From assembly GCA_016218065.1 (NCBI GenBank), contig JACRFA010000056.1, positions 1-50,199 on the forward strand: a stretch of 50,199 nucleotides of DNA, in the 5' to 3' direction. The position numbers and the translations under genes are program-made. Origin of the DNA: Ignavibacteriota bacterium (GTDB lineage: Bacteria > Bacteroidota > Ignavibacteria > UBA10030 > UBA6906). The notes under the pieces are model-generated. The model made no database searches, was not told the origin of the DNA, and was given only the letters and a program-made list of their open reading frames with translations. Of this stretch, positions 4,519 through 50,199 are shown piece after piece. Numbering within the stretch: the stretch's first letter is position 1; the number at the start of each line of letters is the position of its first letter.

Positions 4519-4528
4519 CGTTGTGTGC

Positions 4529-4966: not shown

Positions 4967-5177
4967 CGCTGCGCATTCGGTTTATGTAGTCTTGAGCATC
5001 CTCTCCCCAGTAGTGGGGGGCGATGCCACAATATTTCATGGCGCGCACAAGAGCCTCTTCCCTCGATCTCCTTCTCTTCTTGAGCTGCATGTAGAGTTTA
5101 TCTTGTGCATCTACATCGAGCTTTTCTATTTCACCAAGCAGGCGATTGATCTCGCTTTGTGTTGCATTATCAGCCAT
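4953..5177 (-). CDS. Antitoxin partner of VapC
   Basis: A 74-residue charged protein: an N-terminal helix (TQSEINRLLGEIEKLDVDAQ), a basic stretch KKRRRSREEAL, then an acidic C-terminus (YWGEDAQDYINRMRSDDRL) of the kind that plugs a PIN active site. The 14-base overlap with vapC supports the assignment. No specific DNA-binding family is recognised. Confidence 0.72.
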   Translation of the reverse strand: MADNATQSEINRLLGEIEKLDVDAQDKLYMQLKKRRRSREEALVRAMKYCGIAPHYWGEDAQDYINRMRSDDRL

Positions 5178-7342: not shown

Positions 7343-7357
7343 AGTCGTTCCTCCGCT

Positions 7358-8329
7358 CTATTTCCTGCTTTGTGCCTTCGCGTATTTTGTCGAATCGGCG
7401 TTGCCATTCAAAAACCACGACCACCGGAGTTCCTTCACTTCGCGCGTGTTTGCCAACGCTTTCGTGATGCACATCTCTGCCATCGCATTTACCATCCACG
7501 TAAAATTCTCCGCGCCGACGGAATGGTAATCTGCATCGGGCGCCGGATTGAGAAAATCAATCGCGTACGGAATTCCGTCGCGCACCGCAAACTCAATTGT
7601 GTTCATGTCATAGCCAAGCGTGCGACAAATGGTGAGACAATCTCTAATGATGCGCTGCTCGAGATCGGGCGAGGGCGGCGTGTTCGGTTTTACGTAGCGC
7701 ATGTCGTGCGGCTGCTTCGGATCGTAGCGCATGATGTGTACCTTCTCCTGTCCAATGCAGTAGCAACGATAGTAATCTTCGAACTCAATCCCCTCTTGCA
7801 GCGTCATCACGATGTCGCCGGTCTGATGGTAGAAGTGGAAGAAGTCGCCCTCGTTATGACACTTGTACACGTGCTTCCATCCGCCGCCGCTGTGCGGCTT
7901 GAGAAATGCCGGGAAGCCGACATACTCGAACACATCTTTCCACTCAAGAGGATAATGAAGATTCCGGAACGATTGCGACGTCGTTTCGGGCGGATGAGTG
8001 TATGAAGGGAGCAGAACCGTTTTCGGAATCGCGACGCCGAGCTTCGACATCAACGCGTAGTTGAAGAACTTGTCGTCGGCGCTCCACCAGAAGGGATTGT
8101 TCACGACGGCGGTTCCGTTGAGCATCGCATTCTTCAAGTACGAACGATAGTAGGGAACATCCTGCGAAATACGATCGACAATCAGATCGTACTTGACCGG
8201 CTCGGCCATGACAGTGATGCCGAGATCGACGTACTCGGCAATCACGCCCTGGTTCATTTCGTTGATGCGAGCAACGACAGCGCCCGGAAATGTATTCTCC
8301 ATGCCGAAGAGAAAGCCGACTCGTTTCAT
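7358..8329 (-). CDS. RimK/D-Ala-D-Ala-ligase-like ATP-grasp enzyme
   Basis: A 323-residue ATP-grasp ligase. GFPAFLKPHSGGGWKHVY (K144 and the glycine loop) binds ATP. The C-terminal lobe has TIEFAVRDGIPYAIDFLNP with the metal-binding residues E246, D258 and N261, followed by the family-like tail NPAPDADYHSVG. The enzyme would form an acyl phosphate and then an amide or peptide bond; substrate unknown. I chose the ATG at 8327-8329 because the 23 upstream residues of the longer frame are not ATP-grasp-like. First gene of the ligase-peptidase operon, diverging from pepF. Confidence 0.85.
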   Translation of the reverse strand: MKRVGFLFGMENTFPGAVVARINEMNQGVIAEYVDLGITVMAEPVKYDLIVDRISQDVPYYRSYLKNAMLNGTAVVNNPFWWSADDKFFNYALMSKLGVAIPKTVLLPSYTHPPETTSQSFRNLHYPLEWKDVFEYVGFPAFLKPHSGGGWKHVYKCHNEGDFFHFYHQTGDIVMTLQEGIEFEDYYRCYCIGQEKVHIMRYDPKQPHDMRYVKPNTPPSPDLEQRIIRDCLTICRTLGYDMNTIEFAVRDGIPYAIDFLNPAPDADYHSVGAENFTWMVNAMAEMCITKALANTREVKELRWSWFLNGNADSTKYAKAQSRK

Positions 8330-8619
8330 GCAAACCCCATTCTCAGTGGTGTATGAATGACAGCTCTTTGTTACGTTGTGAAGGAATCGTGGGATCACGG
8401 TCTACGACCTCGTAGAGGAGCAGATCCCGCAATACAGAGAAGAGAAGCGAAAAGCTTGGCTCATGATAGAAAATTCACCTGCGAGAGTCAAGACATTGGA
8501 CATCGAGATATCTCGTGATGAACAACAACCCGAATATCTCTCCGGTTGCCCTTTCGCCCCCTTCATCGTACATTGGCTACCAGATTTTTCCGACACGTGT
8601 TCCTTATCCGGTGAGAAAA

Positions 8620-37917: not shown

Positions 37918-38319
37918 GAAGCAACAACGCGACGCGCTGCTATGGCTCGGCCAAGCTCAAGACGATCTGGCGGCTGCCGCGACTCTTGCTTCTTCGGGAA
38001 AACATGCGAAGCGTGCTTTCTCTGCCAACAGGCCGGTGAGAAGGCGCTCAAGTCCGTGTGGTTCTTTTTCGGCCTGGAACCCTGGGGTCACTCGCTGACA
38101 TATTTGATTGAAGATATGGAACATCAGTCTGCAAGGGAAATGCTTGCGTCGCTCGCAGAAGTAGCGGCGACATTGGATAAGCTGTACATCCCGACTCGCT
38201 ATCCGCATAGCTTGCCTGACATGATGCCTCGTGATGCGTATCGCGACAAAGACAGCGCCGGGGCCATGGCCGCAGCCGCGCAAGTTGTGAAGACTGCAAA
38301 AACTATTTGCCGATTTTGA
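37907..38319 (+). pseudogene. HEPN-domain protein, reading frame shifted
   Basis: Two frames together give one HEPN protein of about 137 residues. Frame one from ATG 37907 reads QQRDALLWLGQAQDDLAAAA then TLASSGK. The second frame continues CFLCQQAGEKALKSVWFFFG, HSLTYLIEDM and RYPHSLPDMMPRDAYRDK to TGA at 38319. The switch is -1 and falls at about 37996-38012. A lost G would restore the frame as HAEACF. At the same spot the sequence TCG GGA AAA contains a G GGA AAA slippery heptamer in zero frame, so ribosomal frameshifting is an alternative. The 37942 ATG of the second frame is unlikely to be real. Confidence 0.75.
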
Positions 38320-38393
38320 GTAGCGCCAATCTTTGAACGCATGCCGCGAACGATTTAGTCCACGCAACGACAAATATTTCCACTTAAGATTGT

Positions 38394-38897
38394 ATGAGTT
38401 TCATCCGCACGCTTGACCGCCTCCTCGTCAAATCCGAAACAGCTATTCTCGTCCTCTTTCTCTCCGTGATGATCCTGCTTTCATTCGCTCAGGTTTTCCT
38501 GCGCAACGTGTGGGGCATCGGATTTCTGTGGGCTGATCCGCTCATTCGTCATCTGGTGATTTGGGTCGGATTTCTCGGCGCGGCGGTTGCCACGCACGAA
38601 GATCGCCACATCAGCATCGATGCAATAACGCGATTCCTTCCGCCGAGAATAAAGTCGCTCGCACATATCCTGACCTCAGTGTTCGCGCTTGTTGTGTGCT
38701 ACTTTCTTGCTGATGCGGCGTGGAAGTTTTTCATAGATGAGAAGATTTCCGGCGAAGAGCTTGTGCTTTCCATCCCGTTGTGGGCGGCCATCGTCATTAT
38801 TCCTGTCGGCTACGGACTGATGATGATACATTTTTTGGTGAAGATCGCCGAGCATGCGGTTCTCCTCTTCGCGCGACCGGAGGCGAGGCCACAATGA
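38394..38897 (+). CDS. TRAP transporter small permease (DctQ type)
   Basis: A 167-residue inner-membrane protein with four helices and the DctQ signature around MILLSFAQVFLRNVWGIGFL, WADPLIRHLVIWVGFLGA and THEDRHISIDAITRFLP. It links the binding protein to the large permease. It overlaps the large permease gene by four bases (ATGA). A 74-base gap separates it from the intervening HEPN gene. The gap has no obvious promoter, so it is likely expressed by read-through. Confidence 0.92.
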   Translation: MSFIRTLDRLLVKSETAILVLFLSVMILLSFAQVFLRNVWGIGFLWADPLIRHLVIWVGFLGAAVATHEDRHISIDAITRFLPPRIKSLAHILTSVFALVVCYFLADAAWKFFIDEKISGEELVLSIPLWAAIVIIPVGYGLMMIHFLVKIAEHAVLLFARPEARPQ

Positions 38898-40174
38898 AAC
38901 TCGTTCTGATCGTCCTCGCGTTCGTTCTCGTCGCGCTGCTTGGCGCGCCTCTCTTCACCCTCATCGGGTCGATTGCGATGTTGAGCTTCAGCGCCGAAGA
39001 CATCGACTCGTCGGCAGTGATGGTTGAGTTGTACCGTATTTGCAGCAACCCGACGCTCGTCGCGATTCCGCTCTTCACTTTCGCAGGCTACGTGTTGGCG
39101 GAAAGCAAAACTCCTCAGCGCCTCGTGAATCTCGCGCGGGCGTTCTTCGGCTCATTCACCGGCGGATTCGCTGTTGTCGTGCTGGTAACATGCGCAGTCT
39201 TCACCGCGTTCACCGGCGCATCGGGCGTCACGATCGTTGCGCTCGGCGGACTTCTCTTTCCCATCCTGCTCAAGGAACAGTATCCCGAAAAATTCGCGCT
39301 CGGACTCATCACCACATCGGGCAGCCTGGGATTGTTGTTCCCGCCAAGTCTGCCGATCATTCTGTATTCGGTGACGGCAAAACTGAGCATCGACCAGCTC
39401 TTCACGGCCGGATTGATTCCGGGCATCCTCCTCGTCGTCATTCTCTCCACCTACGGAATTCAGCAAGGCAAAAAAGCCAAAGTGCCCACGACGCCGTTCT
39501 CATGGACGAATGTCAAAAGCTCCGTGCGTGAGGCGATCTGGGAAATTCCGTTGCCGATCATCGTCATCGGCGGCATCTATGCCGGAACGTTCACCGCCAC
39601 CGAAGCGGCCGCGATCACGGCGTTCTACGTGTTGATTGTCGAAGTGTTCATCTACAAAGATCTGAATCTCTTCCGCGACGTTCCGCGTGTGATGCGCGAA
39701 AGCATGGTGCTCGTCGGCGCAATTCTGATGATCATCGGCACCGCGATGGGACTCACCAACTATCTCGTCGATAACGAAGTGCCGCTGAAGCTCTTCGAGT
39801 TCACCAAAACGTTCATCAGCAGTGCGACGATGTTTCTCATCGTGCTGAATCTTTTCCTGATTATTGTCGGGATGATGATGGACATTTTTTCGGCGATCAT
39901 CATTGTCGTTCCGCTCATTATTCCCATCGCGACTGCGTACGGCGTCGACCCGATTCACCTCGGCATCATATTTCTAACAAATCTGGAAATCGGCTACCTG
40001 ACACCGCCGGTGGGGTTGAACCTCTTCATCTCGAGCATCCGGTTCAAAAAGCCCGTCTTCACCATCGTGCGAGCAACGCTGCCGTACATCGGCATTCTGC
40101 TCGTTGCGCTTCTGATCATCACGTACATGCCGTCGATCAGTCTCTGGTTGGTCAATGCGCTCGGCGTGAAGTAG
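38894..40174 (+). CDS. TRAP transporter large permease (DctM type)
   Basis: A 426-residue inner-membrane transporter with about 12 helices, the sodium-coupled transport subunit. DctM features include NPTLVAIPLFTFAGYVLAES, GASGVTIVALGGLLFPIL, GSLGLLFPPSLPIILYS (helical hairpin), GTFTATEAAAITAFYVLIVE and LEIGYLTPPVGLNLFISS. The start is the ATG at 38894 in the DctQ stop overlap; a longer frame from 38780 is only read-through of dctQ sequence. With TatT, DctP and DctQ it makes a complete TPAT-type TRAP importer; substrate unknown. Confidence 0.94.
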   Translation: MKLVLIVLAFVLVALLGAPLFTLIGSIAMLSFSAEDIDSSAVMVELYRICSNPTLVAIPLFTFAGYVLAESKTPQRLVNLARAFFGSFTGGFAVVVLVTCAVFTAFTGASGVTIVALGGLLFPILLKEQYPEKFALGLITTSGSLGLLFPPSLPIILYSVTAKLSIDQLFTAGLIPGILLVVILSTYGIQQGKKAKVPTTPFSWTNVKSSVREAIWEIPLPIIVIGGIYAGTFTATEAAAITAFYVLIVEVFIYKDLNLFRDVPRVMRESMVLVGAILMIIGTAMGLTNYLVDNEVPLKLFEFTKTFISSATMFLIVLNLFLIIVGMMMDIFSAIIIVVPLIIPIATAYGVDPIHLGIIFLTNLEIGYLTPPVGLNLFISSIRFKKPVFTIVRATLPYIGILLVALLIITYMPSISLWLVNALGVK

Positions 40175-40213
40175 CCTTGCGTCGTAGGCTTGCGTCGTAG
40201 ACTTGCGTCTCTT
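40175..40213. repeat. Three tandem 13-base repeats after dctM
   Basis: CCTTGCGTCGTAG, GCTTGCGTCGTAG and the partial ACTTGCGTCTCTT follow directly after the dctM stop, the third degenerate. No function is apparent. Confidence 0.6.
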
Positions 40214-40240
40214 CGCTGAAACAGTATCTTGTTCCACAGT

Positions 40241-40585
40241 ATGAAATGGATTGGCAAAATAGCTCTCATCGTTCTTGCGTCGTTCTACTTGATGACGACG
40301 TCTGCCATTTCGGTGCGGGTCATCAGCGAAGGTATTCCCTGCAGCGGCGCAAATGCAATCGACACGTGGAGCGGCAAGTCCGCCGAGATTCCCGCGAAGC
40401 TCACATCTCAGCGCGGACATGTATCGCTTGCAAAAGCTATCCCTTGCCCCTCTCCTCACGTCAACGCGGCAATTGTTCCTCCCGTCGTCGATGAACAGAG
40501 AACCGTCATCGAGTTGCCCGTAATCGGGAACTCACGCGCGTTCTTCAGCTTATCTCTCTGCGATCGGGCGCCGCCTCTCGCGTAA
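40241..40585 (+). CDS. Small exported hypothetical protein
   Basis: A 114-residue frame beginning with a signal peptide (WIGKIALIVLASFYLMTTSA) and continuing with a Pro/Ser/Ala-rich stretch holding CSGANAIDTWSGKSAEIPAK and three Cys residues. I recognise no family. The good signal peptide argues for a real gene, but no clear ribosome site precedes the ATG and codon usage in the second half is unremarkable. It stands 66 bases after dctM on the same strand. Confidence 0.45.
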   Translation: MKWIGKIALIVLASFYLMTTSAISVRVISEGIPCSGANAIDTWSGKSAEIPAKLTSQRGHVSLAKAIPCPSPHVNAAIVPPVVDEQRTVIELPVIGNSRAFFSLSLCDRAPPLA

Positions 40586-40703
40586 CATCTCTTTCCCATA
40601 ATTCTCAACAATCGAAGCTGCCTGTGTTCCTCGGATTTTGAGGAGCCTCTGTTGACTTCGATCTATTCCATTTTGTTGAATCGATTTCCAAAGGAGAAGA
40701 GCC

Positions 40704-40859
40704 ATGTCACGCGATCAAAAAGAATCGACATCGAAATCATCCCAACACATCTCTCAAGAGCCGCCAGAAACAGGATCATCATGGCAGATCAAGTTCGTTC
40801 TTGCCGTCATCGTCCTGGGTTTGCTCCTTCTGATTCTGAAAGCGCTTGGGTTGGTATAG
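40704..40859 (+). CDS. Small single-span membrane protein, 51 residues
   Basis: ATG at 40704 has a strong AAAGGAGAAG seven bases upstream. The protein begins with a Ser/Gln/Glu-rich cytosolic part (RDQKESTSKSSQHISQE) and ends in one hydrophobic helix FVLAVIVLGLLLLILKALGL before TAG. The spaced Shine-Dalgarno and the amphipathic-free helix support expression. Function unknown; it could be a small regulator or an accessory of a membrane complex. It is convergent with the glycosidase gene 21 bases further on. Confidence 0.6.
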   Translation: MSRDQKESTSKSSQHISQEPPETGSSWQIKFVLAVIVLGLLLLILKALGLV

Positions 40860-40880
40860 ACCGGCGAAGAAGGAACATTT

Positions 40881-42314
40881 TCACTGGTGAGTTTTCAGCA
40901 ACAAGGGGCTGCTCTCGTTGTTCCCTTTGTCGAATGCCGTCACTACGTAGTAGAGCGGCCTCGATGCCTCTGCGTTCGTGTCTGTGAAGTTCGTCTGCGA
41001 CGTGCGGCCCAGGAGAAATCCGGGATTGTTGGTGTTGAATTGCGGAGAGTCGAAGCGATACACTGCGTAGAAGCGTGCCTCGTCTCCGTCTCGTGCCCGC
41101 GCAGGTTGGCGCCATTGTAACTGAACGGTCCGATCGGCTTTCTGCATGACCTGCGGATTGGTCGGAGCAAGCGGCGGAATGCTATCCTTCCACGGCATGG
41201 AAGGCGGAATGGCAAGCGCAGGGTAGCTCGTTCGAAAATCTGTCGAAGCAACATTCTCATACCGGAAGAACACCTGACCCGACGTCTTCAACTTGCGCGA
41301 CGAGATAATCTGATCGGGCAGTTGCGCAAGTATCTCCGGCCTGTACGCGCCGATGCTCACATAGATGTGTCGTCCGCCAGAATCTTTCATCCAGCTGTTG
41401 GTGAGATAGGCGAAGTCGGGCCCGCGCGTTTCGAACTCGAGCGTCCAATAGACTTGCGGCGCAAGGTAATCGAGCCAGCCGTTCTTCAGCCATGATCGGG
41501 AGTTCTGCAGGAAATCGGAGACCGCGCCCGCGGCGATCTTCGTGTTGGGTTGCGCGCTTAACGCTCCGCCGAAATTGCCGAGCGGCGCAGCGCCAACTTT
41601 GAGCATCGGATTGACGCGCAGGAGTTCGTTGTACGCCCGACGCACGAAGTCGTTGATGTTCTCCTGCCGCCACTCGTCGAGCGTCAGCCCGCGTCCGAAT
41701 TTCCGGTACGTCGTGCGATCGGGAAAATCTCTGCCCGGGTAACGAATGAAATCGAAGCAGATGCCGTCGAGATCGTAGTGTTGGGCGAGATCGCGCAGCA
41801 CGGTGAGAATGTAGTCTGTTACCTCCGGTTCGCCCGGGTCGAACCACTGTTCATCTTCGTAGCGCACGACCCAATCGGGGAAGGCGCGGGCGGGATGGTG
41901 CGGCGAGCTTGCCGCCGGCGGACCGGCGCCGCGAATCTTGTACACGTTGAACCACGCGTGGACTTCCATGCCGGCATCGTGCGCGTGTTGAATGACGAAC
42001 GCGAGCGGATCCCAGCCGGGATTCTTGCCGAGCGTTCCCGTGAGGTTCTCTGCCCACGGCTCGTAAGCCGAACGATAGTACGCGTCGCCGCGTGCACGTA
42101 CTTGAAAGAAGATGGCATTGAGATTAGCTTCCCTCATGCTCAAGATCATCTCACGCAACGATTGCTGCTGCTCGGCCGCGTCGTACGACTTGGGCCAATC
42201 GAGTCCGCTGGTGGTAGTGATGTACACGCCGCGCAGCTCGCGCTTCGGCAACGACTGCGCGGACGCAGTCATGACGATCAGAATCAACACACAACAGACA
42301 ATGCCGAATCGCAA
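40881..42314 (-). CDS. DUF187/GHL10-family glycoside hydrolase-like exported protein
   Basis: A 477-residue exported protein. The signal peptide is FGIVCCVLILIVMTASAQ. A TIM-barrel of the family-10-like hydrolases (DUF187, YngK type) follows, with RELRGVYITTTSGLDWP, NLNAIFFQVRARGDAYYRSA, PLAFVIQHAHDAGMEVHAWF, YDLDGICFDFIRYPGR and DYLAPQVYW. A C-terminal fibronectin-type III-like domain (about 385-477) contains TVQLQWRQP and RFYAVYRF. Members probably cleave peptidoglycan or surface polysaccharide; activity is rarely tested. The Asp in FDFIRYPG is a candidate catalytic residue. Confidence 0.86.
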   Translation of the reverse strand: MRFGIVCCVLILIVMTASAQSLPKRELRGVYITTTSGLDWPKSYDAAEQQQSLREMILSMREANLNAIFFQVRARGDAYYRSAYEPWAENLTGTLGKNPGWDPLAFVIQHAHDAGMEVHAWFNVYKIRGAGPPAASSPHHPARAFPDWVVRYEDEQWFDPGEPEVTDYILTVLRDLAQHYDLDGICFDFIRYPGRDFPDRTTYRKFGRGLTLDEWRQENINDFVRRAYNELLRVNPMLKVGAAPLGNFGGALSAQPNTKIAAGAVSDFLQNSRSWLKNGWLDYLAPQVYWTLEFETRGPDFAYLTNSWMKDSGGRHIYVSIGAYRPEILAQLPDQIISSRKLKTSGQVFFRYENVASTDFRTSYPALAIPPSMPWKDSIPPLAPTNPQVMQKADRTVQLQWRQPARARDGDEARFYAVYRFDSPQFNTNNPGFLLGRTSQTNFTDTNAEASRPLYYVVTAFDKGNNESSPLLLKTHQ

Positions 42315-42425
42315 CTGGCGAGTTCAGTTAGTGAGACATGCTTTGTAGATAAGATACGTTCTCCGGGCAGAAATGCAAAAGGGATTTCTTGACTGTCACG
42401 GCAACGAATTCTGCTCGAGCAGACG

Positions 42426-42480
42426 CAACACATTCCCCTCTGTGCGATTGGATGTGTATAGGGGAGAGGGGAAGCGAAGG
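42426..42480. repeat. DUF559-associated 55-base repeat, copy 1
   Basis: It starts CAACACATTCCCCTCTGTG and ends GAGAGGGGAAGCGAAGG, with TTCCCCTCT and AGAGGGGAA as inverted stem arms. Copy 2 lies at 42621-42675 with about five mismatches, and the first 19 bases recur at 43130-43148. Confidence 0.75.
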
Positions 42481-42620
42481 CCTGCCCGCCTCAAAGAACA
42501 CCATAGGCAGGCGGGGGTGTGTTGCAGGTGTAGTGAACACACCCCGTCCCGACTCACTTCGTTCGTCGTGACACCCCTCTCAAGAGGGGAATCAATGTCG
42601 TGCGATGAAAGAAACTTGCA

Positions 42621-42675
42621 CAACACATTCCCCTCTGTGTGATGGGATGTGTGTAGGAGAGAGGGGAAGCGAAGG
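42621..42675. repeat. DUF559-associated 55-base repeat, copy 2
   Basis: Direct repeat of 42426-42480, 195 bases away, sharing the CAACACATTCCCCTCTGTG start and GAGAGGGGAAGCGAAGG end. It ends 25 bases before the DUF559 start codon. Confidence 0.75.
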
Positions 42676-42700
42676 GGTGTGTCAACAGTTGGAACTGACA

Positions 42701-43084
42701 ATGAAAAAGCAATTCGCTCATTACAATCCTCGGTTGAAGGGACTTGCGCGCGAGTTGAGGAACAACAGTACGCTCGCCGAAGTGCTGCTGTGGAACCAAC
42801 TGAAGCGCAAGCAAATGATGGGATACGACTTCCATAGGCAAAAACCGTATGATGAGTACATACTCGATTTCTTTTGTCCGCGACTGATGCTTGCAATAGA
42901 GATAGATGGCGTCAGTCATATGTTCCGGGAAGACAAGGACGAAAAACGTCAAAGACGGTTGGAAGGACTTGGTGTGCGTTTTTTGAGCTTCGATGATCTC
43001 GATGTGAAATTCCGAATGGACGATGTGCTGAAGAGAATCAGACAATGGATTGAAAAACACCAGCACGACAAAACCCAAGTGTAA
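42701..43084 (+). CDS. DUF559 endonuclease-like protein
   Basis: A 127-residue protein of the DUF559 family, a compact PD-(D/E)xK-related fold similar to Vsr. Marks are RLKGLARELRNNSTLAEVLL, WNQLKRKQMMGYDFHRQKP, YILDFFCPRLMLAIEIDGVS and RRLEGLGVRFLSFDDLDV. ATG 42701 starts it; the longer frame from 42605 is repeat sequence. Flanked by 55-base repeats upstream and a 19-base copy downstream (43130-43148), it looks like the passenger or agent of a repeat-bounded element. Proteins of this family are common but have little tested function. Confidence 0.88.
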   Translation: MKKQFAHYNPRLKGLARELRNNSTLAEVLLWNQLKRKQMMGYDFHRQKPYDEYILDFFCPRLMLAIEIDGVSHMFREDKDEKRQRRLEGLGVRFLSFDDLDVKFRMDDVLKRIRQWIEKHQHDKTQV

Positions 43085-43129
43085 CATCCCCGTCTGCGCG
43101 AAGGCACGAGGCAACAAAAAACACGGCCA

Positions 43130-43148
43130 CAACACATTCCCCTCTGTG
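43130..43148. repeat. DUF559-associated repeat, truncated copy 3
   Basis: CAACACATTCCCCTCTGTG, identical to the first 19 bases of copies 1 and 2, lies 45 bases after the DUF559 stop in the same orientation. The rest of the unit is absent. Confidence 0.7.
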
Positions 43149-43250
43149 AAGGTACTCTTCTTCTCGACCCGGCTTCTCCGCTCCAACGAGTTTGAACTTC
43201 CCATCAATGCAGAGTTTCGGCTTGCCGGATAGTTTGCTCATCGGCGCTGC

Positions 43251-43281
43251 TTGACTTTCCCTCCCCATCAACCTACATTTG
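43251..43281 (+). promoter_or_regulatory. Putative promoter of the TIR/KGGT/patatin system
   Basis: TTG (43251-43253), a 20-base spacer and TACATTTG (43274-43281), an exact match to the Bacteroidota pattern TTG...TAnnTTTG. It lies 100 bases upstream of the TIR start codon, and no other promoter-like site is seen before the operon. Confidence 0.5.
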
Positions 43282-43380
43282 TGCGGAAGAAAAGCTCTTC
43301 GATAGTGCTTTCTCTTCAACGTGACGTTCCTTGCATTCGAACGATGCTTCGCAGTCTCATGCTCTCCCGGGGATCCGTGT

Positions 43381-44028
43381 ATGAAAGCTTTTAAGTACGC
43401 GTGCTTCATCAGCTACTGCCATGGACAAGGCGCGCTCGTCAGCAGTTTCATCGAGCAGCTCAAGACATCGCTCAAAGCGTGTCTCGAACCGTACTTCGAT
43501 ACCGACGAGTGCGTCTATATCGATGAAGATCGGTTGAAGTCGGGCGCGCTCTACAACACAGGACTTGCGGATGCGATTTGCCGAAGCATGTCCATGATCG
43601 TCGTGTACATGCCGAAGTATGAGCATCACTCGTACTGTCTGCGCGAGTACACGGCGATGGAGCGATTGGAGGCGGAACGGTTCAAGCTGAGCGGCAACGG
43701 CGCCGCGCAGGACCGCGGCATGATCATCCCGATTCTCTTCCGGGGCCGCGCCGACGATTTGCCCGAACGCATCCGGAAGCACCGGCACTTCTGCGACTTC
43801 TCAAAATTCACCACTGCAACCAGCGACATTCTCAAGAACGAAGAGTTCGTCAGAAAGATCGAAGAGATCGCGAGTTACATCTACGATCTCTCGAAAGAGT
43901 TCGATTCGCTCGCCGCAAATCCGTGCAGCAATTGTTCGTCGTTCCAGCTTCCGGCAGAAACGGAAGTGAAGCCCTGGCACGAAACCATTCCCGTCACGCC
44001 GTTCGTCTTCCGTCAACAGAATCCATGA
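43381..44028 (+). CDS. TIR-domain protein (putative NADase effector)
   Basis: A 215-residue protein whose first ~165 residues form a TIR domain: AFKYACFISYCHGQGALVSS, EPYFDTDECVYIDEDRLKSG, ICRSMSMIVVYMPKYEHHSY and, at the usual catalytic position, Glu89 in SYCLREYTAMERLEAE. Bacterial TIR proteins cleave NAD+ or make cyclic ADP-ribose products. The remaining ~50 residues are low in structure signs. The start at 43381 fits the domain; a longer frame from 43321 adds 20 unrelated residues. It overlaps the ATPase gene by four bases (ATGA). It recalls the TIR proteins paired with KGGXGR ATPases in Actinobacteria. Confidence 0.87.
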   Translation: MKAFKYACFISYCHGQGALVSSFIEQLKTSLKACLEPYFDTDECVYIDEDRLKSGALYNTGLADAICRSMSMIVVYMPKYEHHSYCLREYTAMERLEAERFKLSGNGAAQDRGMIIPILFRGRADDLPERIRKHRHFCDFSKFTTATSDILKNEEFVRKIEEIASYIYDLSKEFDSLAANPCSNCSSFQLPAETEVKPWHETIPVTPFVFRQQNP

Positions 44029-46820
44029 CCCCATACGATCCGACCGGCAAAGTCATCACGTTCTATTCATACAAAGGCGGAACAGGCCGTTCGATGGCGC
44101 TTGCCAACGTTGCCTGTTTGCTCGCGCAGCGCAGCGATGTGCATCGCGGCGTGTTGATGATCGATTGGGATCTGGAAGCGCCGGGGTTGCATCGATTCTT
44201 TCACGATCGCTTCACGAGAAGATTTCCTGCTTCGTCTCTCGCCAACGGCGAGAAAGACTTCGCGCAAGCGCCGGGTCTGATCGATTTCTTCGTCGAGCTT
44301 GAGGCGCGCGTACGCGAGGCCACATCCGACGGCAAGCCGCAATCGGAGCCGCAGTCCGATGAACTGATGGCAAAGGTCGATCTGCGCAAGTATGCTATTG
44401 AGACGGACGTTCCATCGCTGTCGCTCATGAAGGCCGGCGCGTTTGATCAATCGTACTCCAGGCGGGTAACGACATTCAATTGGGAAGACCTCTACAACCG
44501 CTCGCCGTACATCATGCAAGCGTTCGCGGAGCGGCTTGCGCGCGACTACAGTTTCGTGCTCATCGATTCGCGGACAGGCATAAGCGACGCGAGCGGCATC
44601 TGCACAATGTTGCTTCCCGAAAAGCTCGTCGTTGTGTTCACGCCCAATCGGCAGAGTCTTATGGGTGTGGACGACATTGTGCAGCGAGCGACCGAGTACC
44701 GGCGGCAGTCCGACGATCTGCGACCGCTGATCGTGTTTCCGCTTCCGTCGCGCATCGATTTGTCGGAGAAAGAGCTGCAAGCCTGGTGGCGGTCGAACAT
44801 GCAAAGTCCCGACGTGCTTGCATACGAGCCGCTCTTTCAGCGCATGTTCGAGAACGTGTACGGGCTGAAGCATTGCGATCTCGCCGCCTATTTTGATGAA
44901 GTGCGCATTCAGCATTTTCCTTTCTATTCTTACGGAGAGAAGATTGCCGTTTTGCAGAAGGGAGAATCGGATCGTCTATCGCTTGCGCGCAGCTACGCAA
45001 CGTTCACGACCTGGCTCGTCGATCGTCCGTGTCCTTGGAAGGAAGAAGTTCCCGTTCAGGTTCCGACTGCAACCGCCGATGAGGTGAAGCTGGCAGAAAC
45101 CGCGTTTGCGCGTCTCTCATCTGACGAGCAAAAAACACTGCAGCGCATTTTCCTCCGTCTCGTGCGCATAGCTGAGTCGGGCGAGCGGGAGAATGCCAAT
45201 CGAGGATTGAAGGCAAGAATTTCGGATTTTGACAGATCGTCGTTGCCCCTCGTTCGGTCGCTGCAGGAGGAACGGCTTCTGATTGTCGAAGCCGACAAGG
45301 TGAGCGGCGAAGAGACTGTGCAGATCGCGAGTGATGGTTTGATTGATGCATGGCCGCGTTTGAAGACGTGGCTGAAGGAGGACAGAGATTTTCTCGTCTG
45401 GCGTCAGCAGTTGCGGACCAACATGGCGCAGTGGGAAAAATCCAAAGACCACGGGGCGTTGCTGAGCGGCGCGCCGCTCGGAGAAGCGCAGCGATGGCTT
45501 GCAAGCCGGGGATCGGATCTCAGCGCGAGTGAACATGAGTACATCGTCGGCAGCGCCAACGTCGTGAGAAAAGGAAAGCTGAACACCTGGCTTGCTTTGC
45601 TCGGGTTCTTCATCATTGTGGCCGGCATTGCGTTGTGGCAGTATTTCCGAACGCAGCGCGAGCAGGCTGAGTTCTCGAACGTTCTTTCTGACGGATACTC
45701 CTTGTACAAGAACGGCCAGTTGGATTCAGCGATTGTCCGGTTCGGCGACGGGATTGCGATGCGCGACCAAAGCGCAGAGGCGTACTATGCGCGCGGCTCG
45801 GCGCTGCTCAGCAAACGTGACTACAAAAAGGCCGCGGCAGATTTCAGTCAGGCGTTGCAGCGCAAGCCGGATTACGCCGATGCGCTGAACGACCGCGGCG
45901 TTGCGTCTCTGAATCTCGGCGACACGACGCAGGCGATCCGCGACTTCGAGAAGGCGATTGAAGTAAGTCCGAACAGCGCTCTGCCGTACACCAACCGCGG
46001 CATGATCTATTACCGCGAGCAGAATTATTCCAAGGCGCTTGAGTTTCAGGCGAAGGCGGTTTCACTGAACCAGAATTCCTGGGTCAGCTATATCGAACGC
46101 GGCAACGCGTACCTGGAGCTTAAAGACACTGCGAAGGCTCTGCAGGATTACGGCCACGCGATAGACTTGCAACCCGATTCCGCGCTTGGATACTACAACC
46201 GCGGCGTTGTGTATCGCGCGAGCGGCGCGTACGATCTGGCGCTTGCGGAACTTGCCCGCGCGCTCGAGCTGAAGCCGGGCTACGCGGAGGCGTATATGAA
46301 TCGCGCCATCATCTACTTCAAACGCCGATCGCGTCAGGCGGCGATCGATGAGGCGAATCGAGCCTTGCAGTTGGCGGCCGACTCCGTCTTGATTCGCGAA
46401 GCAAACGACTCGCTCCGTTCGTGGGGCGCGGCCGCGCCGATCCGCATCCCGACAGCTCAGGTGACACGCGTGTTCGTTCATTACAATGATCGGCGCGACT
46501 CATTACTGGTTCTTCGCGTCAACTTCGCGCTCGCAGGCAGATTCAAGGTGCAGCCGTCGCAAGTCGTCACGCAGCGTACATTCGGCGACGTGCGGTACTA
46601 CTATGACGCAGACAAGTCAAACGCCGAAGCAGTCCGGCGCCTCGTGCAGAAAACACTGATGGGAGAAGGCATTGCGCTCAGCATCCAGCTTTTGTACTTA
46701 GGCGAATCGTACGCGCAGAACATCCGGGTGAACGCGATGAGGCGTCTTCCGGCCATGGGAACAATCGAAGTCTGGCTCCCGTCACTCCGCGACTATCAAT
46801 CCATGCAGATGGCAAAATGA
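44025..46820 (+). CDS. KGGT P-loop ATPase with STAND-like segment, membrane helix and TPRs
   Basis: A 931-residue multidomain protein. Residues 1-330 are a ParA/MinD-type ATPase: VITFYSYKGGTGRSMALANV carries the signature Lys17 but Arg22 in place of the second Walker lysine; MIDWDLEAPG and FVLIDSRTGISD follow. Residues ~360-515 resemble the winged-helix end of STAND proteins (SLPLVRSLQEERLLIVEA, LIDAWPRLKTWLKEDRDFLV, LGEAQRWLASRGSDLSASEH). One membrane helix is at about 522-544 (WLALLGFFIIVAGIALWQYF), then about six TPRs (555-790), then a ~110-residue tail of unknown fold. A sensor or scaffold role in the four-gene system is inferred. It is coupled by ATGA overlaps to both neighbours. Confidence 0.85.
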   Translation: MTPYDPTGKVITFYSYKGGTGRSMALANVACLLAQRSDVHRGVLMIDWDLEAPGLHRFFHDRFTRRFPASSLANGEKDFAQAPGLIDFFVELEARVREATSDGKPQSEPQSDELMAKVDLRKYAIETDVPSLSLMKAGAFDQSYSRRVTTFNWEDLYNRSPYIMQAFAERLARDYSFVLIDSRTGISDASGICTMLLPEKLVVVFTPNRQSLMGVDDIVQRATEYRRQSDDLRPLIVFPLPSRIDLSEKELQAWWRSNMQSPDVLAYEPLFQRMFENVYGLKHCDLAAYFDEVRIQHFPFYSYGEKIAVLQKGESDRLSLARSYATFTTWLVDRPCPWKEEVPVQVPTATADEVKLAETAFARLSSDEQKTLQRIFLRLVRIAESGERENANRGLKARISDFDRSSLPLVRSLQEERLLIVEADKVSGEETVQIASDGLIDAWPRLKTWLKEDRDFLVWRQQLRTNMAQWEKSKDHGALLSGAPLGEAQRWLASRGSDLSASEHEYIVGSANVVRKGKLNTWLALLGFFIIVAGIALWQYFRTQREQAEFSNVLSDGYSLYKNGQLDSAIVRFGDGIAMRDQSAEAYYARGSALLSKRDYKKAAADFSQALQRKPDYADALNDRGVASLNLGDTTQAIRDFEKAIEVSPNSALPYTNRGMIYYREQNYSKALEFQAKAVSLNQNSWVSYIERGNAYLELKDTAKALQDYGHAIDLQPDSALGYYNRGVVYRASGAYDLALAELARALELKPGYAEAYMNRAIIYFKRRSRQAAIDEANRALQLAADSVLIREANDSLRSWGAAAPIRIPTAQVTRVFVHYNDRRDSLLVLRVNFALAGRFKVQPSQVVTQRTFGDVRYYYDADKSNAEAVRRLVQKTLMGEGIALSIQLLYLGESYAQNIRVNAMRRLPAMGTIEVWLPSLRDYQSMQMAK

Positions 46821-48145
46821 ACAGACCTCTTTGCTTTGTCTTGATGCCGTTCGGCAAGAAGCCGGATGCGGCAGGAGTGCTCATCGATTTCGACGCAGTG
46901 TATCGCGAGTTGATTGCACCGGCGATACTCGATGCCGACCTGCAGCCGCTTCGCGCGGACGAGGAACTCACCGGCGGCATCATTCATAAGCCGATGTTCG
47001 AGCGCTTGATTCTTTGCGACTACGCGATCGCCGATCTCACGACGGTGAACGCGAACGTCTTCTATGAGCTTGGCATTCGTCATGCCGTCCGCCCGCAGAC
47101 GACGATCCTCCTTTTCTCCGACAAGTCGCGCTTGCCATTCGATGTTGCGCTGCTCCGAGCGATGCCATACGGAATCAACGATGCGGGTTCGCCTTCGCAT
47201 ATCGACTCCGACAAACGTGCACTGGCAGATCGCCTGCGTTCGGCGAAGATCAGCGCAACGCATGACAGTCCCATCTTCCAGCTCGTCGAAAATTTTCCCG
47301 ATATCAAACGACTCAAGACCGACGTCTTTCGTCAGCAGGTGGAGTACGCGGCGGCCATCAAAGAACGTCTCGCTCACGCAAGGAAGCAAGACGTGACTGC
47401 GATGAAAACCATCGAACAGGAACTCGGAACGCTCGTCGATCAAGAGTCGGGCGTCATCATCGATCTGTTCCTTTCCTACCGCGCTGTGAAGGCGTGGAGT
47501 GAGATGATCGCGTTGGTGAAGAAGATGCCGCTGCCGCTCGCTTCGTCCGTCATGGTGCAGGAGCAGCTTGCGCTCGCGCTGAACCGCAACGGCGAGAGCG
47601 ATCATGCCGAACGCATCTTGCTCGACCTCATCGCGTTGAAGGGGCCGAGCAGCGAAACATACGGCATACTCGGTCGCGTGTACAAGGATCGGTGGGAGAA
47701 TGCAATGAAGTCCGGCGATGCGTTGCTCGCGAATGGCATTCTGCAGAAGGCGATCGACGCATACCTTCGCGGCTTTGAGGCCGATTGGCGCGACGCGTAT
47801 CCGGGCATCAACGCTGTTACCCTGATGGAGCTGAAGAATCCTCCCGACGATCGGCGCACGAAGCTCATTCCCATCGTCGCCTACGCGGCCGAGCGCAGAG
47901 TTGCAACGGGCAAAGCGGATTACTGGGACCACGCAACGCGACTTGAGCTTGCAGTTCTCGCGAAGCACGAGTCGGCAGCCGCAGCGTCGTTGAGCGATGC
48001 GCTTGCGTGCATCCGTGAACGATGGGAGCCGGAGACGACAGCGCGAAATCTTCGCCTCATCCGTGAAGCGCGCCAGAAGCGGAACGAGTACCTGCCCTGG
48101 GCGCAGCGATTCGAAGATGAGTTGCGCAGCAAAGCAGGCGCGTGA
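46817..48145 (+). CDS. DRHyd (deoxyribosyltransferase-like) plus TRAFs-binding/TPR-S protein
   Basis: A 442-residue cytosolic protein. Residues 1-125 form a nucleoside-2-deoxyribosyltransferase-like Rossmannoid domain: LCFVLMPFGKKPDAAG, IIHKPMFERLILCDYAIADL and TTVNANVFYELGIRHAVRPQ, with Asp69/Asp73, Asn80 and Glu84 as candidate catalytic residues. Residues ~170-440 match the TRAFs-binding (DUF4071) alpha-helical repeat also found at the N-terminus of animal ASK1-type kinases. Relatives may hydrolyse a nucleotide or NAD-derived signal. It overlaps the ATPase gene by four bases. The same TPR-S type recurs in the patatin protein downstream. Confidence 0.85.
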   Translation: MNRPLCFVLMPFGKKPDAAGVLIDFDAVYRELIAPAILDADLQPLRADEELTGGIIHKPMFERLILCDYAIADLTTVNANVFYELGIRHAVRPQTTILLFSDKSRLPFDVALLRAMPYGINDAGSPSHIDSDKRALADRLRSAKISATHDSPIFQLVENFPDIKRLKTDVFRQQVEYAAAIKERLAHARKQDVTAMKTIEQELGTLVDQESGVIIDLFLSYRAVKAWSEMIALVKKMPLPLASSVMVQEQLALALNRNGESDHAERILLDLIALKGPSSETYGILGRVYKDRWENAMKSGDALLANGILQKAIDAYLRGFEADWRDAYPGINAVTLMELKNPPDDRRTKLIPIVAYAAERRVATGKADYWDHATRLELAVLAKHESAAAASLSDALACIRERWEPETTARNLRLIREARQKRNEYLPWAQRFEDELRSKAGA

Positions 48146-48449
48146 ATTCCCGACTCAATGCTCCTCGATCAGATCGATTACGAATTCACAACGAACCGTT
48201 GATCATTGTGAATTGATTCTTTCTCGGACGGCAGGTTCACTTGATTGTTTTGGGCCTTCAGCGGGTGTTCCTCGTCATGACCGAGGTGCATGGCGCGAAG
48301 CGGAGCGTACTACGTCGGTTCAAACGCGGTCGCCCTTGCGAATGACCGAAGACAGAGGACCGAGGACGAGAGAGGCCAGAAGTCAAGACGACGCACAGAA
48401 ATCAGAATGCGAACCCCGAACCCTGAACCCTGAACCACCGGAGGCCGCG
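48146..48449. other. Spacer before the TPR-S/patatin gene
   Basis: No gene seen. It contains fragments of interspersed repeats (GCGAATGACCGAAGAC-like) and, at its 3' end, four 7-base units. Whether the patatin gene is read through from the three upstream genes or has its own promoter is not decided; I find no clear TTG...TAnnTTTG pair here. Confidence 0.45.
48410..48437. repeat. Heptamer tandem repeat next to the patatin ribosome site
   Basis: CGAACCC, CGAACCC, TGAACCC and TGAACCA stand in a row, ending two bases before the GGAGG ribosome binding site (48440-48444). Copy-number change would alter the distance between any upstream signal and the ribosome site. Confidence 0.75.
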
Positions 48450-50199
48450 ATGAAACGTACCATCACCGATAACGTTGCCGCAGCGCGGAGAATCCTCCGT
48501 GGCGAGACCGCAACGCCGGAAGAGATTTTTGACCTCTCGACAGCACTCAAGAAAGAGAATGAGTTCGGATACAGTCGAAAGCTCCTGGGCCGCGCCCTCG
48601 ACGATGCGACGATTCACGCCAAGCCTGCACTCCAGCTGAAGATCTCGCAGGAGTACGCGCTCTGCACATACAAGGATGCCGACCTGCCCGTTCTTGCCCG
48701 ACTCAACCGCGCGCTGGTGATTCTTGATCGCGCCGATCTATTGGTCGGTACGAAGAATCAGGAAACGCTCGGACTCGCCGGAGCGATCTGGAAGCGGAAG
48801 TGGGAAGTGGAGAACCAGAAAACCAATCTCGAGCGATCGCTCTCATACTATCATCGCGGATATCGCTTCGGCATCGACAACGACAACGGCTACACGGCGA
48901 TCAATGCTGCCTTTGTGCTAGACTGCCTGGCCGCCCTCGAGATGAGCGAGGCGTTGCATGCCGGAACAACCTCGGCGACAGCGGCGGCGCGAGTGAATGA
49001 GGCGAAGACAATCCGCAGAGAAATCGTCGCGTCCCTTGAGAAGCAACTCGCCGCCAATCCCGCGCTCGGTTCTCAGTGGTGGTTCGTGGTCACGGTCGCA
49101 CAAGCGTACTTCGGCCTCGCCGATTTTGCGAAAGCCTCCGAGTGGCTCATGAAGGCAACCGCGCTCGACTCGGTTGAGGAGTGGCAGTACGAATCGACGG
49201 CGCGACAGTTTGCCCAACTCGCTTCGCTGCAAGAGCAGCTCACTGGCGGCGCGCTCGACGCAGTCGCGGAAGCCTGGCAAACACTCAGTCAGTTTCTCGG
49301 CAACAATGCCGCAGCTCTGCGAACGTTGGACATCGGCAAGTTCGGGCTTGCGCTTTCAGGCGGCGGATTCCGTGCATCGCTGTTTCATATCGGTATGCTG
49401 GCGCGCCTCGCCGAGCTTGATCTGCTCAGGCATGTCGAGGTGATCTCGTGCGTGTCGGGCGGCTCGATCATCGGCGCTCACTACTACCTTGAGCTGCGAC
49501 GCCTGCTCGAATCGAAAGCCGACCGCGACATTACGCAGCAGGATTACGTCGAGCTTGTGCAACGCGTCGAGCGCGATTTTCTTGCCGGCGTGCAGAGGAA
49601 CATCCGCATGCGGGTCGCGGCCGATTGGCTCGCGAATGTGAAGATGTTGTTCGTGCCGCATTACTCGCGCACACAGCGTGTCGGTGAATTGTTCGAGAAA
49701 GAAATCTTCGCTCGCGTCCAGGGTAACACGCCCGACAAGCCCATCTGGCTGAACGAGTTGTTCATCCAGCCAAAAGATGCTCCCCCGAATTTTCATCCGA
49801 AGTATCACAACTGGAAGCGTGAAGCAAAAGTCCCGATGCTGATCCTCAATGCCACGGCATTGAACTCCGGCCACACATGGCAGTTTACTGCATCGTGGAT
49901 GGGCGAACCGCCAATGGAGATCGATGAGGAGATCGATTCAAACAAGCGTCTGCGGAGAATGTACTATCACGAGGCGCCGGAGAAGTATCGACGATTTCGG
50001 TTGGGTCACGCGGTTGCTGCGTCGGCGTGCGTTCCCGGGTTGTTCGAACCACTCGCGCTGCCGAACCTGTACGAAGACGTGACAGTGCGATTGGTGGACG
50101 GCGGCGTGCACGACAACCAGGGCACGGGCAGTTTGAAAGAGCAAGACTGCACAGTGATGGTGGTGAGCGACGCGAGCGGACAGATGGACTATCAGGAAA
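48450..50199 (+). CDS. TPR-S (TRAFs-binding) plus patatin-like phospholipase, partial
   Basis: The frame is open from ATG 48450 to the window end (about 583 residues, no stop). GGAGG lies five bases before the ATG. Residues 1-280 are TPR-S helical repeats, including SQWWFVVTVAQAYFGLADFA and WQYESTARQFAQLASLQEQL, like the end of DUF4071 proteins. The patatin domain follows: oxyanion loop LSGGGFRASLFHIGMLA (303-308 core), nucleophile Ser339 in ISCVSGGSIIGAHYYLEL, and catalytic Asp550 in RLVDGGVHDNQGTGSL. Active patatins release fatty acids from phospholipids, and in CBASS systems they kill by membrane damage. Expected to be the membrane-attacking effector of the system. Confidence 0.88.
   Translation, partial: MKRTITDNVAAARRILRGETATPEEIFDLSTALKKENEFGYSRKLLGRALDDATIHAKPALQLKISQEYALCTYKDADLPVLARLNRALVILDRADLLVGTKNQETLGLAGAIWKRKWEVENQKTNLERSLSYYHRGYRFGIDNDNGYTAINAAFVLDCLAALEMSEALHAGTTSATAAARVNEAKTIRREIVASLEKQLAANPALGSQWWFVVTVAQAYFGLADFAKASEWLMKATALDSVEEWQYESTARQFAQLASLQEQLTGGALDAVAEAWQTLSQFLGNNAAALRTLDIGKFGLALSGGGFRASLFHIGMLARLAELDLLRHVEVISCVSGGSIIGAHYYLELRRLLESKADRDITQQDYVELVQRVERDFLAGVQRNIRMRVAADWLANVKMLFVPHYSRTQRVGELFEKEIFARVQGNTPDKPIWLNELFIQPKDAPPNFHPKYHNWKREAKVPMLILNATALNSGHTWQFTASWMGEPPMEIDEEIDSNKRLRRMYYHEAPEKYRRFRLGHAVAASACVPGLFEPLALPNLYEDVTVRLVDGGVHDNQGTGSLKEQDCTVMVVSDASGQMDYQE

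What the first reader, a model, noticed from the sequence alone, without database searches (positions are those of the whole stretch)
43251..50199. Four-gene TIR / KGGT-ATPase / DRHyd-TPR-S / TPR-S-patatin system
Seen: three genes joined by ATGA overlaps and a fourth 304 bp later, with a single promoter-like site before the first. They encode a TIR protein with the catalytic Glu, a KGGT ATPase with STAND-like, membrane and TPR parts, a deoxyribosyltransferase-like domain on TPR-S, and TPR-S fused to a patatin with intact Ser and Asp. Known: TIRs deplete NAD+, patatins serve as CBASS effectors, and TIR-KGGXGR and DUF4071/DRHyd proteins are associated with prokaryotic conflict systems. Inference: the set forms one immunity or programmed-death system in which TPR-S acts as a shared adaptor, with two chemistries of attack (nucleotide/NAD and membrane lipid). 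I do not know this exact gene set as a named system.
Basis: partly seen in the sequence, partly recalled or inferred. Interest (0 to 1): 0.9.

Follow-up and report, generated by a model that had tools for sequence, protein, structure and literature searches.

The report
TIR-ATPase plus TPR-S lipase immune operon
Four neighbouring genes in an uncultured bacterium look like a cell-suicide defence switch in which an NAD-cutting protein probably makes a signal that is read by a shared sensor domain, related to one in the human stress kinase ASK1, and turned into membrane damage by a lipase.

Summary
The patatin nucleophile is Ser336, not Ser339, and the promoter-like site is no better than chance.

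The set is modular, not fixed. Of 80 genome loci of the DRHyd–TPR-S protein (at least seven phyla), 27 hold a second TPR-S protein: 12 with patatin, 8 α/β-hydrolase, 4 trypsin-like, 3 CHAT. TIR genes are modestly enriched beside it. Of 10 TIR–KGGVGR pairs examined, 7 lack TPR-S neighbours; but a Rhodocyclaceae chromosome holds all four component types with α/β-hydrolase in place of patatin, and a Pyrinomonadaceae genome holds three. The TPR-S modules of genes 3 and 4 are homologous and resemble ASK1. In one genome TPR-S–patatin sits beside TIR genes without DRHyd–TPR-S.

Most likely reading: a Thoeris/CBASS-like abortive-infection system. The TIR, controlled by the ATPase, makes an NAD-derived messenger; TPR-S receives it; DRHyd and patatin execute. 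Function is inferred, not shown. A new variant of a kind that is predicted but, as far as I found, untested.

The parts
   Evidence: 2 sites found in 42300-50199, 2.8 in shuffles
43381..44028 (+). gene 1: TIR protein, 215 aa; TIR_2 at residues 9-144 (43405-43812); putative catalytic Glu89
   Evidence: the Glu column is kept in 10 of 10 aligned TIR partners of KGGVGR ATPases, this one included
44025..46820 (+). gene 2: KGGTGR ATPase, 931 aa, overlapping gene 1 by 4 bp
   Evidence: AAA_KGGVGR 125.6 bits (cut-off 90), residues 9-221 (44049-44687)
45090..45449 (+). STAND-type tail (nSTAND1 model positions 263-376 of 379 only)
   Evidence: the relative L079 has the same tail behind an NB-ARC NTPase
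45573..45650 (+). single predicted membrane helix, residues 517-542
   Evidence: hydropathy; one such helix also behind the tail in L133, L079 and L055
45774..46310 (+). TPR array of gene 2 (residues 584-762); a C-terminal conserved domain follows
   Evidence: TPR_1, TPR_2, TPR_11 and others; C-terminal alignment
46817..48145 (+). gene 3: DRHyd–TPR-S protein, 442 aa, overlapping gene 2 by 4 bp
   Evidence: DRHyd part about residues 1-125, with D73, N78, N80, Y83 and E84 invariant in 41 sequences
47495..47827 (+). TPR-S of gene 3 (residues 227-337)
   Evidence: 90.2 bits; structure model best matched by ASK1 5ulm, Z 22.0, 3.1 A over 254 residues
48244..48339 (+). dispersed ~90-bp repeat inside the 304-bp spacer
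   Evidence: (40 other matches in the genome)
48450..50198 (+). gene 4: TPR-S–patatin, 583 aa visible, cut off by the contig end
48618..48917 (+). TPR-S of gene 4 (residues 57-156)
   Evidence: 57.8 bits (cut-off 27.6)
49347..50117 (+). patatin domain (residues 300-556): oxyanion motif GGGFR, Ser336 (49455-49457), Asp550 (50097-50099)

Best explanation
An abortive-infection type immune operon built from two joined modules. (1) Trigger: the membrane-anchored KGGT-ATPase with STAND-type tail and TPRs (gene 2) senses a threat and licenses the TIR (gene 1), which consumes NAD+ and makes an NAD-derived messenger. (2) Response: the ASK1-like TPR-S modules of genes 3 and 4 receive this messenger and switch on two executioners, the DRHyd nucleotide/NAD glycosidase of gene 3 and the patatin phospholipase of gene 4. 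Shown here by comparison: domains, conserved catalytic residues, homology of the two TPR-S modules, their correlated divergence, effector swapping and TIR neighbourhood. Inferred: that it acts against phages, that the TIR makes a messenger, that TPR-S binds it, and that the ATPase is the sensor. My confidence in 'a conflict system of this general kind' is about 0.8; the value below is for the specific circuit.
For: Gene 3's subfamily was found in 80 loci at 54-68% identity in distant phyla (147 relatives, best 80 kept), which suggests horizontal spread. A second TPR-S protein lies within the fetched flanks of 27 of 80: 12 with patatin, 8 α/β-hydrolase, 4 Trypsin_2, 3 CHAT; a further CHAT protein (L084) has a sub-cut-off TPR-S match. 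Of 89 nearest same-strand neighbours 16 match TPR-S, 11 TIR_2, 8 ThsB_TIR, 7 Patatin; of 89 distant genes 3 match TIR_2 and at most 1 each of the others; one-sided Fisher p 7e-5 for TPR-S, 0.02-0.03 for the rest. Distances of gene-3 and gene-4 homologues correlate over 14 loci (Mantel r 0.66, p 1e-4). The TPR-S modules are homologous; ASK1 is the best structural match of both TPR parts; the patatin part resembles cPLA2 and the CBASS lipases CapE/CapV. L133 carries TIR, KGGT–STAND tail–TPR, TIR–TPR, α/β-hydrolase–TPR-S and DRHyd–TPR-S on one strand, with the same 4-bp TIR/ATPase overlap. TPR-S–patatin beside REC–TIR and TIR–nSTAND1–FGE without DRHyd–TPR-S (L199) fits a TIR-fed receptor.
Against: No activity, ligand or phage data. 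The exact four-gene set was seen nowhere else. DRHyd–TPR-S is near in 3 of 14 KGGVGR loci, and two of those 3 were found through DRHyd–TPR-S itself. TIR neighbours of DRHyd–TPR-S include other TIR types (ThsB 8, CAP12 4 of 89). PADLOC gives no hit for genes 1 and 4, and only partial matches for gene 2 (PDC-M28B, 3e-16) and gene 3 (a TIR effector model, 1e-6). The upstream neighbours scanned (DUF559, GHL10) make no obvious defence island; the rest of the window was not scanned. TIR enrichment is modest (11 v 3), and the distant control proteins are shorter in total (28,605 v 41,143 residues).
Confidence: 0.45

Rival explanations
1. DRHyd–TPR-S (gene 3) is itself the signal generator: its DRHyd domain makes the nucleotide signal that its own TPR-S and the TPR-S of the patatin read; TIR–KGGT is a separate neighbouring defence module.
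For: Gene 3 occurs with TPR-S effectors in 27 of 80 loci and its divergence tracks that of the patatin; 7 of 10 TIR–KGGVGR pairs have no TPR-S gene nearby; the DRHyd glutamate is invariant in 41 sequences.
Against: TPR-S–patatin in L199 lies beside TIR genes without DRHyd–TPR-S, and in L200 and L047 with neither recognised; TIRs are enriched beside DRHyd–TPR-S; L133 and L079 join the TIR–KGGT module with DRHyd–TPR-S again.
Confidence: 0.25
2. TPR-S is a protein-protein adaptor and not a ligand sensor: genes 3 and 4 hetero-oligomerise through TPR-S, as ASK kinases assemble, and the ATPase triggers assembly; no small messenger is involved.
For: The ASK1 central regulatory region is the best structural match of both TPR-S modules; TPR folds commonly bind proteins (general knowledge); TPR-S sits on several effector types.
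Against: TPR-S–patatin in L199 has no second TPR-S protein nearby. The same pattern of invariant residues in both proteins (E280, G286, K290, N332 in gene 3; E105, G111, K115, N152 in gene 4) could be a pocket, but this was not tested.
Confidence: 0.2
3. The four genes are unrelated modules that share a stretch of DNA by chance (defence-island clustering), each working alone.
For: Modules are separable; none of the other 197 relatives has both halves; the fourth gene is 304 bp away behind a dispersed repeat.
Against: 4-bp overlaps across genes 1-3; all four component types on one strand in L133; correlated divergence of genes 3 and 4.
Confidence: 0.1

Closest known systems
DRHyd/TPR-S NAD-signal systems predicted by Burroughs and Aravind 2020 (10.1128/JB.00365-20; recalled, text not held)
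   Same: As recalled: a TPR scaffold (TPR-S) predicted to recognise NAD+-derived signals and taken up into the ASK signalosome. Pfam names PF20308 'Tetratricopeptide Repeats-Sensor', and both genes 3 and 4 carry it.
   Different: I could not check which effectors and partners that paper lists. The KGGT–STAND-tail–TM–TPR trigger and the joint TIR–KGGT / TPR-S–patatin set were not found in the ten searches made here.
Thoeris (ThsB TIR with ThsA effector; definition recalled)
   Same: TIR plus an effector with a receptor domain; ThsB-type TIRs lie beside DRHyd–TPR-S in relatives.
   Different: Gene 1 matches TIR_2 and not ThsB_TIR; no SIR2–SLOG or macro effector among the four proteins.
CBASS patatin effectors CapV/CapE
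   Same: Patatin domain with structural match Z 14.4 (CapE, 3.9 A, 204 residues) and 13.5 (CapV, 5.6 A, 202 residues).
   Different: Sensor is an N-terminal TPR-S; no CD-NTase among the four proteins.
ASK1 (MAP3K5) central regulatory region
   Same: Best structural match of both TPR-S modules and best sequence-profile match in PDB for gene 3 (5e-11).
   Different: ASK1 carries a kinase; here DRHyd or patatin is attached.
TIR–KGGVGR ATPase pairs
   Same: A TIR gene lies directly 5' of the ATPase in 10 of 14 KGGVGR loci.
   Different: Gene 2 has a STAND-type tail, membrane helix and TPRs, aligned here otherwise only with L133, L079 and L055; 7 of the 10 pairs have no TPR-S neighbour.
Swarozyc (DUF4062 TIR-like NADase; PMC13174449, summary and passages seen)
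   Same: DUF4062–STAND/NACHT–FGE proteins neighbour DRHyd–TPR-S in a Nitrospira and a Competibacteraceae locus.
   Different: No DUF4062 match among genes 1-4.

Membership tests
TPR-S (PF20308) | Profile score over curated cut-off in genes 3 and 4 | tested here: met
   90.2 and 57.8 bits against 27.6
TPR-S (PF20308) | Binding of an NAD-derived ligand (recalled prediction) | not testable with these tools
   needs a ligand-binding assay
DUF4071 / MAP3K_TRAF_bd | Profile score over cut-off, gene 3 | tested here: met
   160.2 bits against 24.1
DRHyd (RCL/DNPH1-like) domain | Homology and the YELG glutamate | tested here: inconclusive
   Best PDB profile hits are RCL/DNPH1 at E 0.004-0.013, aligned through YELG; of 15 DRHyd domains none matched PF05014 at E 0.1, two matched a TIR model (CAP12) at best E 0.027 and one TIR_2 at 0.015
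TIR (PF13676) | Profile over cut-off; catalytic Glu | tested here: met
   32.2 bits against 28; Glu kept in 10 of 10 aligned
TIR (PF13676) | NADase activity | not testable with these tools
   needs an enzyme assay
KGGVGR ATPase (NF047398) | Profile over cut-off with KGGxGR motif | tested here: met
   125.6 bits against 90; KGGTGR in sequence
STAND NTPase (nSTAND1) | NTPase part of the model present | tested here: not met
   only positions 263-376 of 379 match
Patatin-like phospholipase (PF01734) | Profile over cut-off; Ser-Asp dyad | tested here: met
   60.7 bits against 27.7; Ser336 and Asp550 invariant in 15 sequences
FxsC | NCBIfam equivalog cut-off | tested here: not met
   38.4 bits against 130
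Thoeris | ThsA effector (SIR2–SLOG or TM–macro) with ThsB TIR | tested here: not met
   no such domains among genes 1-4; other genes of the window were not all scanned
CBASS | CD-NTase cyclase | tested here: not met
   none among genes 1-4; other genes of the window were not all scanned

The most novel reading that the evidence does not exclude
A bacterial immune circuit in which an envelope-anchored KGGT ATPase, having replaced the NTPase of a STAND sensor, drives a TIR to make a messenger that is received by an ASK1-fold TPR-S module shared by two executioners, a nucleotide glycosidase and a membrane lipase. Effectors swap behind the same receptor across phyla, so TPR-S would be a further general messenger receptor beside SLOG/macro (Thoeris) and the CBASS sensors, and ASK1 its animal descendant.
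Probability: 0.3. Interest if true: 0.8.

Novelty: new variant of a known kind. Interest (0 to 1): 0.55.

Why it matters
TPR-S has been predicted (recalled) to sense NAD-derived signals, but my ten literature searches found no experimental test of it. The comparative data here make the question testable: one receptor-like module, related to human ASK1, is coupled to at least four interchangeable bacterial effector types (patatin, α/β-hydrolase, CHAT, trypsin-like) and lies beside TIR genes. If TPR-S reads a TIR product, it joins bacterial immunity to the ASK stress pathway at the level of ligand sensing. The STAND-tail KGGT ATPase would be a new type of trigger.

Tried and rejected
Fixed four-gene system: rejected. 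Of 198 genomes (own and relatives), only the own one has both a KGGVGR ATPase (E <= 1e-15) and a DRHyd–TPR-S gene of this kind; residues 1-560 of gene 2 matched in 3 of 395 genomes of the phylum, the own one included (E <= 1e-25), and in 4 of 300 of the order of G198 (E <= 1e-30).

STAND NTPase for gene 2: rejected; only the tail matches. The NB-ARC-containing relative L079 suggests where the tail comes from.

FxsC for gene 1: rejected, far below cut-off.

A tie between gene 1 and the 231-289 aa proteins beside DRHyd–TPR-S (L078, L090, L096, L117, L065, L066): of the three scanned, only L078 gave a TIR_2 match, at E 0.005 below cut-off; L065 and L117 gave none, and they align poorly with gene 1. 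Not counted as TIRs by me.

The wide gap before gene 4 as a sign of separation: not used. Gaps where patatin follows directly in relatives run from 21 to 430 bp.

DRHyd fold by structure search: the TPR part filled the lists, so the DRHyd fold was barely tested there; the sequence-profile result is weak.

Rfam: no RNA family in 38000-50199. Literature: ten searches listed no paper that I recognised as describing this set or testing TPR-S or KGGVGR; only listed rows were seen, and most subscription papers are not held. The key recalled paper was not held.

Rows dropped: L130 (neighbours of the same lengths as L129), ORFs under 130 aa and ORFs with X; 62 of the remaining 79 loci gave a neighbour. 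34 of 80 loci have under 6 kb on one side, so locus counts are lower bounds. Some anchor ORFs are broken or miscalled in length. Two of the eight α/β-hydrolase calls (L104, L106) rest on clustering and not on Pfam. Five of the seven TPR-S profile seeds came from the 80 loci.
Full report
What is there. The window is the whole contig C294 of a 5.17-Mb, 97%-complete draft genome. Gene 1 (43381-44028) is a TIR protein, gene 2 (44025-46820) a KGGTGR ATPase with STAND-type tail, one membrane helix, TPRs and a conserved C-terminal domain, gene 3 (46817-48145) a DRHyd–TPR-S protein and gene 4 (48450 to contig end) a TPR-S–patatin protein. The 4-bp overlaps are real. The fourth gene is 304 bp away, and the spacer contains a dispersed repeat of about 90 bp with 40 other matches in this genome. 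In relatives where patatin follows DRHyd–TPR-S directly, gaps of 21, 62, 180 and 430 bp occur, so the gap by itself is not unusual. Gene 4 is truncated.

Residues. Glu89 of the TIR is in a column kept in all 10 aligned TIR partners of KGGVGR ATPases. In gene 3, D73, N78, N80, Y83 and E84 are invariant in 41 sequences; the YELG glutamate aligns with the same motif of RCL/DNPH1, whose glutamate is catalytic (recalled), at a weak profile E of 0.004. In gene 4 the oxyanion motif GGGxR, Ser336 and Asp550 are invariant in 15 sequences.

TPR-S is one module in two proteins. Profile-profile comparison aligns residues 243-420 of gene 3 with 61-262 of gene 4 (E 5e-10). AlphaFold2 models (mean pLDDT 83.8 and 87.7) both have ASK1 as best TPR match: Z 22.0 (3.1 A, 254 residues) for gene 3, with the next non-ASK1 row at 15.8, and Z 20.5 (3.5 A, 250 residues) for gene 4, where other TPR rows reach 15.4. 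In Foldseek's own ranking ASK1 leads for gene 3 but is not among the 50 rows shown for gene 4. The patatin part matches cPLA2 (Z 19.5, 3.2 A, 253 residues) and the CBASS lipases CapE and CapV (Z 14.4 and 13.5).

Neighbourhoods. A scan of GTDB contigs gave 80 loci with gene-3 homologues at 54-68% identity in at least seven phyla by record title (147 relatives were found, the best 80 kept). A second TPR-S protein lies in the fetched flanks of 27 of 80: 12 with patatin (in L066 8 kb away, in L096 3 kb, in L093 on the other strand), 8 with α/β-hydrolase (L086, L094, L100, L107, L131, L133 by Pfam, L104 and L106 by clustering), 4 with Trypsin_2 (L068, L071, L115, L126) and 3 with CHAT (L070, seen as G005/L039, L085, L097). 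L084 has CHAT with a sub-cut-off TPR-S match. Of the 89 nearest same-strand neighbours, 16 match TPR-S, 11 TIR_2, 8 ThsB_TIR, 7 Patatin and 4 CAP12-type TIR (one protein can match several TIR models). Of 89 genes at least 6 kb away, 3 match TIR_2, and TPR-S, ThsB_TIR and Patatin have at most one each, because they are not among the 25 families shown. Fisher one-sided p, with one assumed: 7e-5 for TPR-S, 0.02-0.03 for the others. Pairwise distances of gene-3 and gene-4 homologues correlate over 14 loci (r 0.66, p 1e-4), which fits co-inheritance, though shared descent of the hosts contributes.

The TIR–KGGVGR half. KGGVGR ATPases occur in 5 of 198 genomes, the own one included. In 14 loci examined (window, L133, L079, L153, L155, two in L156, L158, L159, L172, L174-L177) a TIR gene lies directly upstream in 10, and DRHyd–TPR-S is near in 3: window, L133 and L079; the last two were found through DRHyd–TPR-S, so this is not an unbiased rate. 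No TPR-S protein was found in the other 11 (L155 is only 4.4 kb long). The version with STAND-type tail, membrane helix and TPRs is seen in window, L133, L079 and L055, and three of those four neighbour DRHyd–TPR-S. L079 has an NB-ARC NTPase between KGGV domain and tail, which suggests that gene 2 descends from such a fusion by loss of the STAND NTPase (inference); in L079 the TIR–KGGV pair lies on the strand opposite to DRHyd–TPR-S, and its TIR was recognised by my own profile only.

L133, a Rhodocyclaceae chromosome, is the best argument for one system: on one strand lie TIR (1221-2501), KGGT–tail–TM–TPR (2498-5083, the same 4-bp overlap), TIR–TPR (5708-8551), α/β-hydrolase–TPR-S (8544-10001) and DRHyd–TPR-S (matched from 10001). 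All four component types are there, with the effector swapped. An Aliarcobacter plasmid carries DRHyd–TPR-S, TIR genes and TPR-S–patatin on one strand.

Reciprocal test. Gene 4 at E <= 1e-60 in 325 genomes of the phylum of G206 (Nitrospira locus L096) and 330 of the order of G198 (locus L133): ten genomes matched, six of them with the TPR-S part. Three of the six were already known to lie near DRHyd–TPR-S (L080, L081, L096; G206 was the centre of the search). The closest to gene 4 (G1171, 59% identity) does not: it lies beside a REC–TIR and a TIR–nSTAND1–FGE protein. G931 has neither, and G994's gene is interrupted by a stop codon. L047 of the window's own family also lacks DRHyd–TPR-S in its neighbourhood. 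So the patatin arm does not need DRHyd–TPR-S next door, and TIR plus a STAND protein can be its company.

Reading. The parts follow one grammar: NADase or TIR, a switch ATPase, TPR-S, interchangeable executioner. I favour TIR as messenger maker and TPR-S as receiver, with DRHyd and patatin as executioners, because ThsB-type TIRs accompany DRHyd–TPR-S and because TPR-S–patatin can occur with TIRs alone. That DRHyd makes the signal, or that TPR-S is only an adaptor, remain open. No call here tests function.

Known or new. TPR-S as predicted sensor of NAD-derived signals and its link to ASK are recalled from Burroughs and Aravind 2020, which is not held. Three related Aravind-group papers were searched for terms and seen as passages (PMC8195603, PMC7159879, PMC9503650); the term TPR-S has no occurrence in them. 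Ten literature searches listed no test of TPR-S or of this set that I recognised. I therefore file it as a new variant of a predicted kind.

Changes made on checking. The share of TIR–KGGVGR pairs without TPR-S was recounted as 7 of 10, the PADLOC result was corrected, and effector types were confirmed by one more Pfam search and script.

Noticed in passing
48244-48339: Dispersed repeat of about 90 bp with GGGC...GCCC ends, 40 other matches in the genome by one search; lies between genes 3 and 4.
   Followed up: partly
42426-42701: Stretches around the start of the DUF559 gene recur elsewhere in the genome (up to 91% over 250 bp, contig C30).
   Followed up: no
42605-43084: DUF559 / REase-like endonuclease gene just upstream of the operon.
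   Followed up: no
L151 (plasmid pM830MA 28000-58000): Aliarcobacter cryaerophilus plasmid published as a putative virulence plasmid (PMC6690266, passages seen) carries DRHyd–TPR-S, TIR genes and TPR-S–patatin on one strand; a defence reading seems at least as likely.
   Followed up: partly
L153:3523-6192: 889-aa protein near a TIR–KGGVGR pair on a Sinorhizobium plasmid has a sub-cut-off patatin match (25.3 against 27.7 bits) and no TPR-S; a lipase may accompany the pair without TPR-S.
   Followed up: partly
L075:11324-13984, L114:1764-4844: DUF4062–nSTAND1/NACHT–FGE proteins next to DRHyd–TPR-S; DUF4062 was reported in 2026 as a TIR-like NADase (PMC13174449).
   Followed up: partly
L078:12046-12834: pYEATS–TIR fusion two genes after DRHyd–TPR-S in Nitrospira; similar 261-aa proteins in L090 and L096.
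   Followed up: no
L078:11417-12112, L117:11369-12094: Family of 231-289 aa proteins, mostly directly after DRHyd–TPR-S, at best a sub-cut-off TIR_2 match (E 0.005); function unknown.
   Followed up: no
L079:2192-6553: KGGV ATPase fused to NB-ARC, STAND tail, membrane helix and TPRs in one 1453-aa protein; a possible ancestor-like form of gene 2.
   Followed up: partly
L154:9802-11442: SIR2–TIR protein next to DRHyd–TPR-S on a Paraburkholderia replicon.
   Followed up: no
L156:3897-6869: Tubulin-like (Tubulin_2) gene next to a TIR–KGGVGR pair in relative G118.
   Followed up: no
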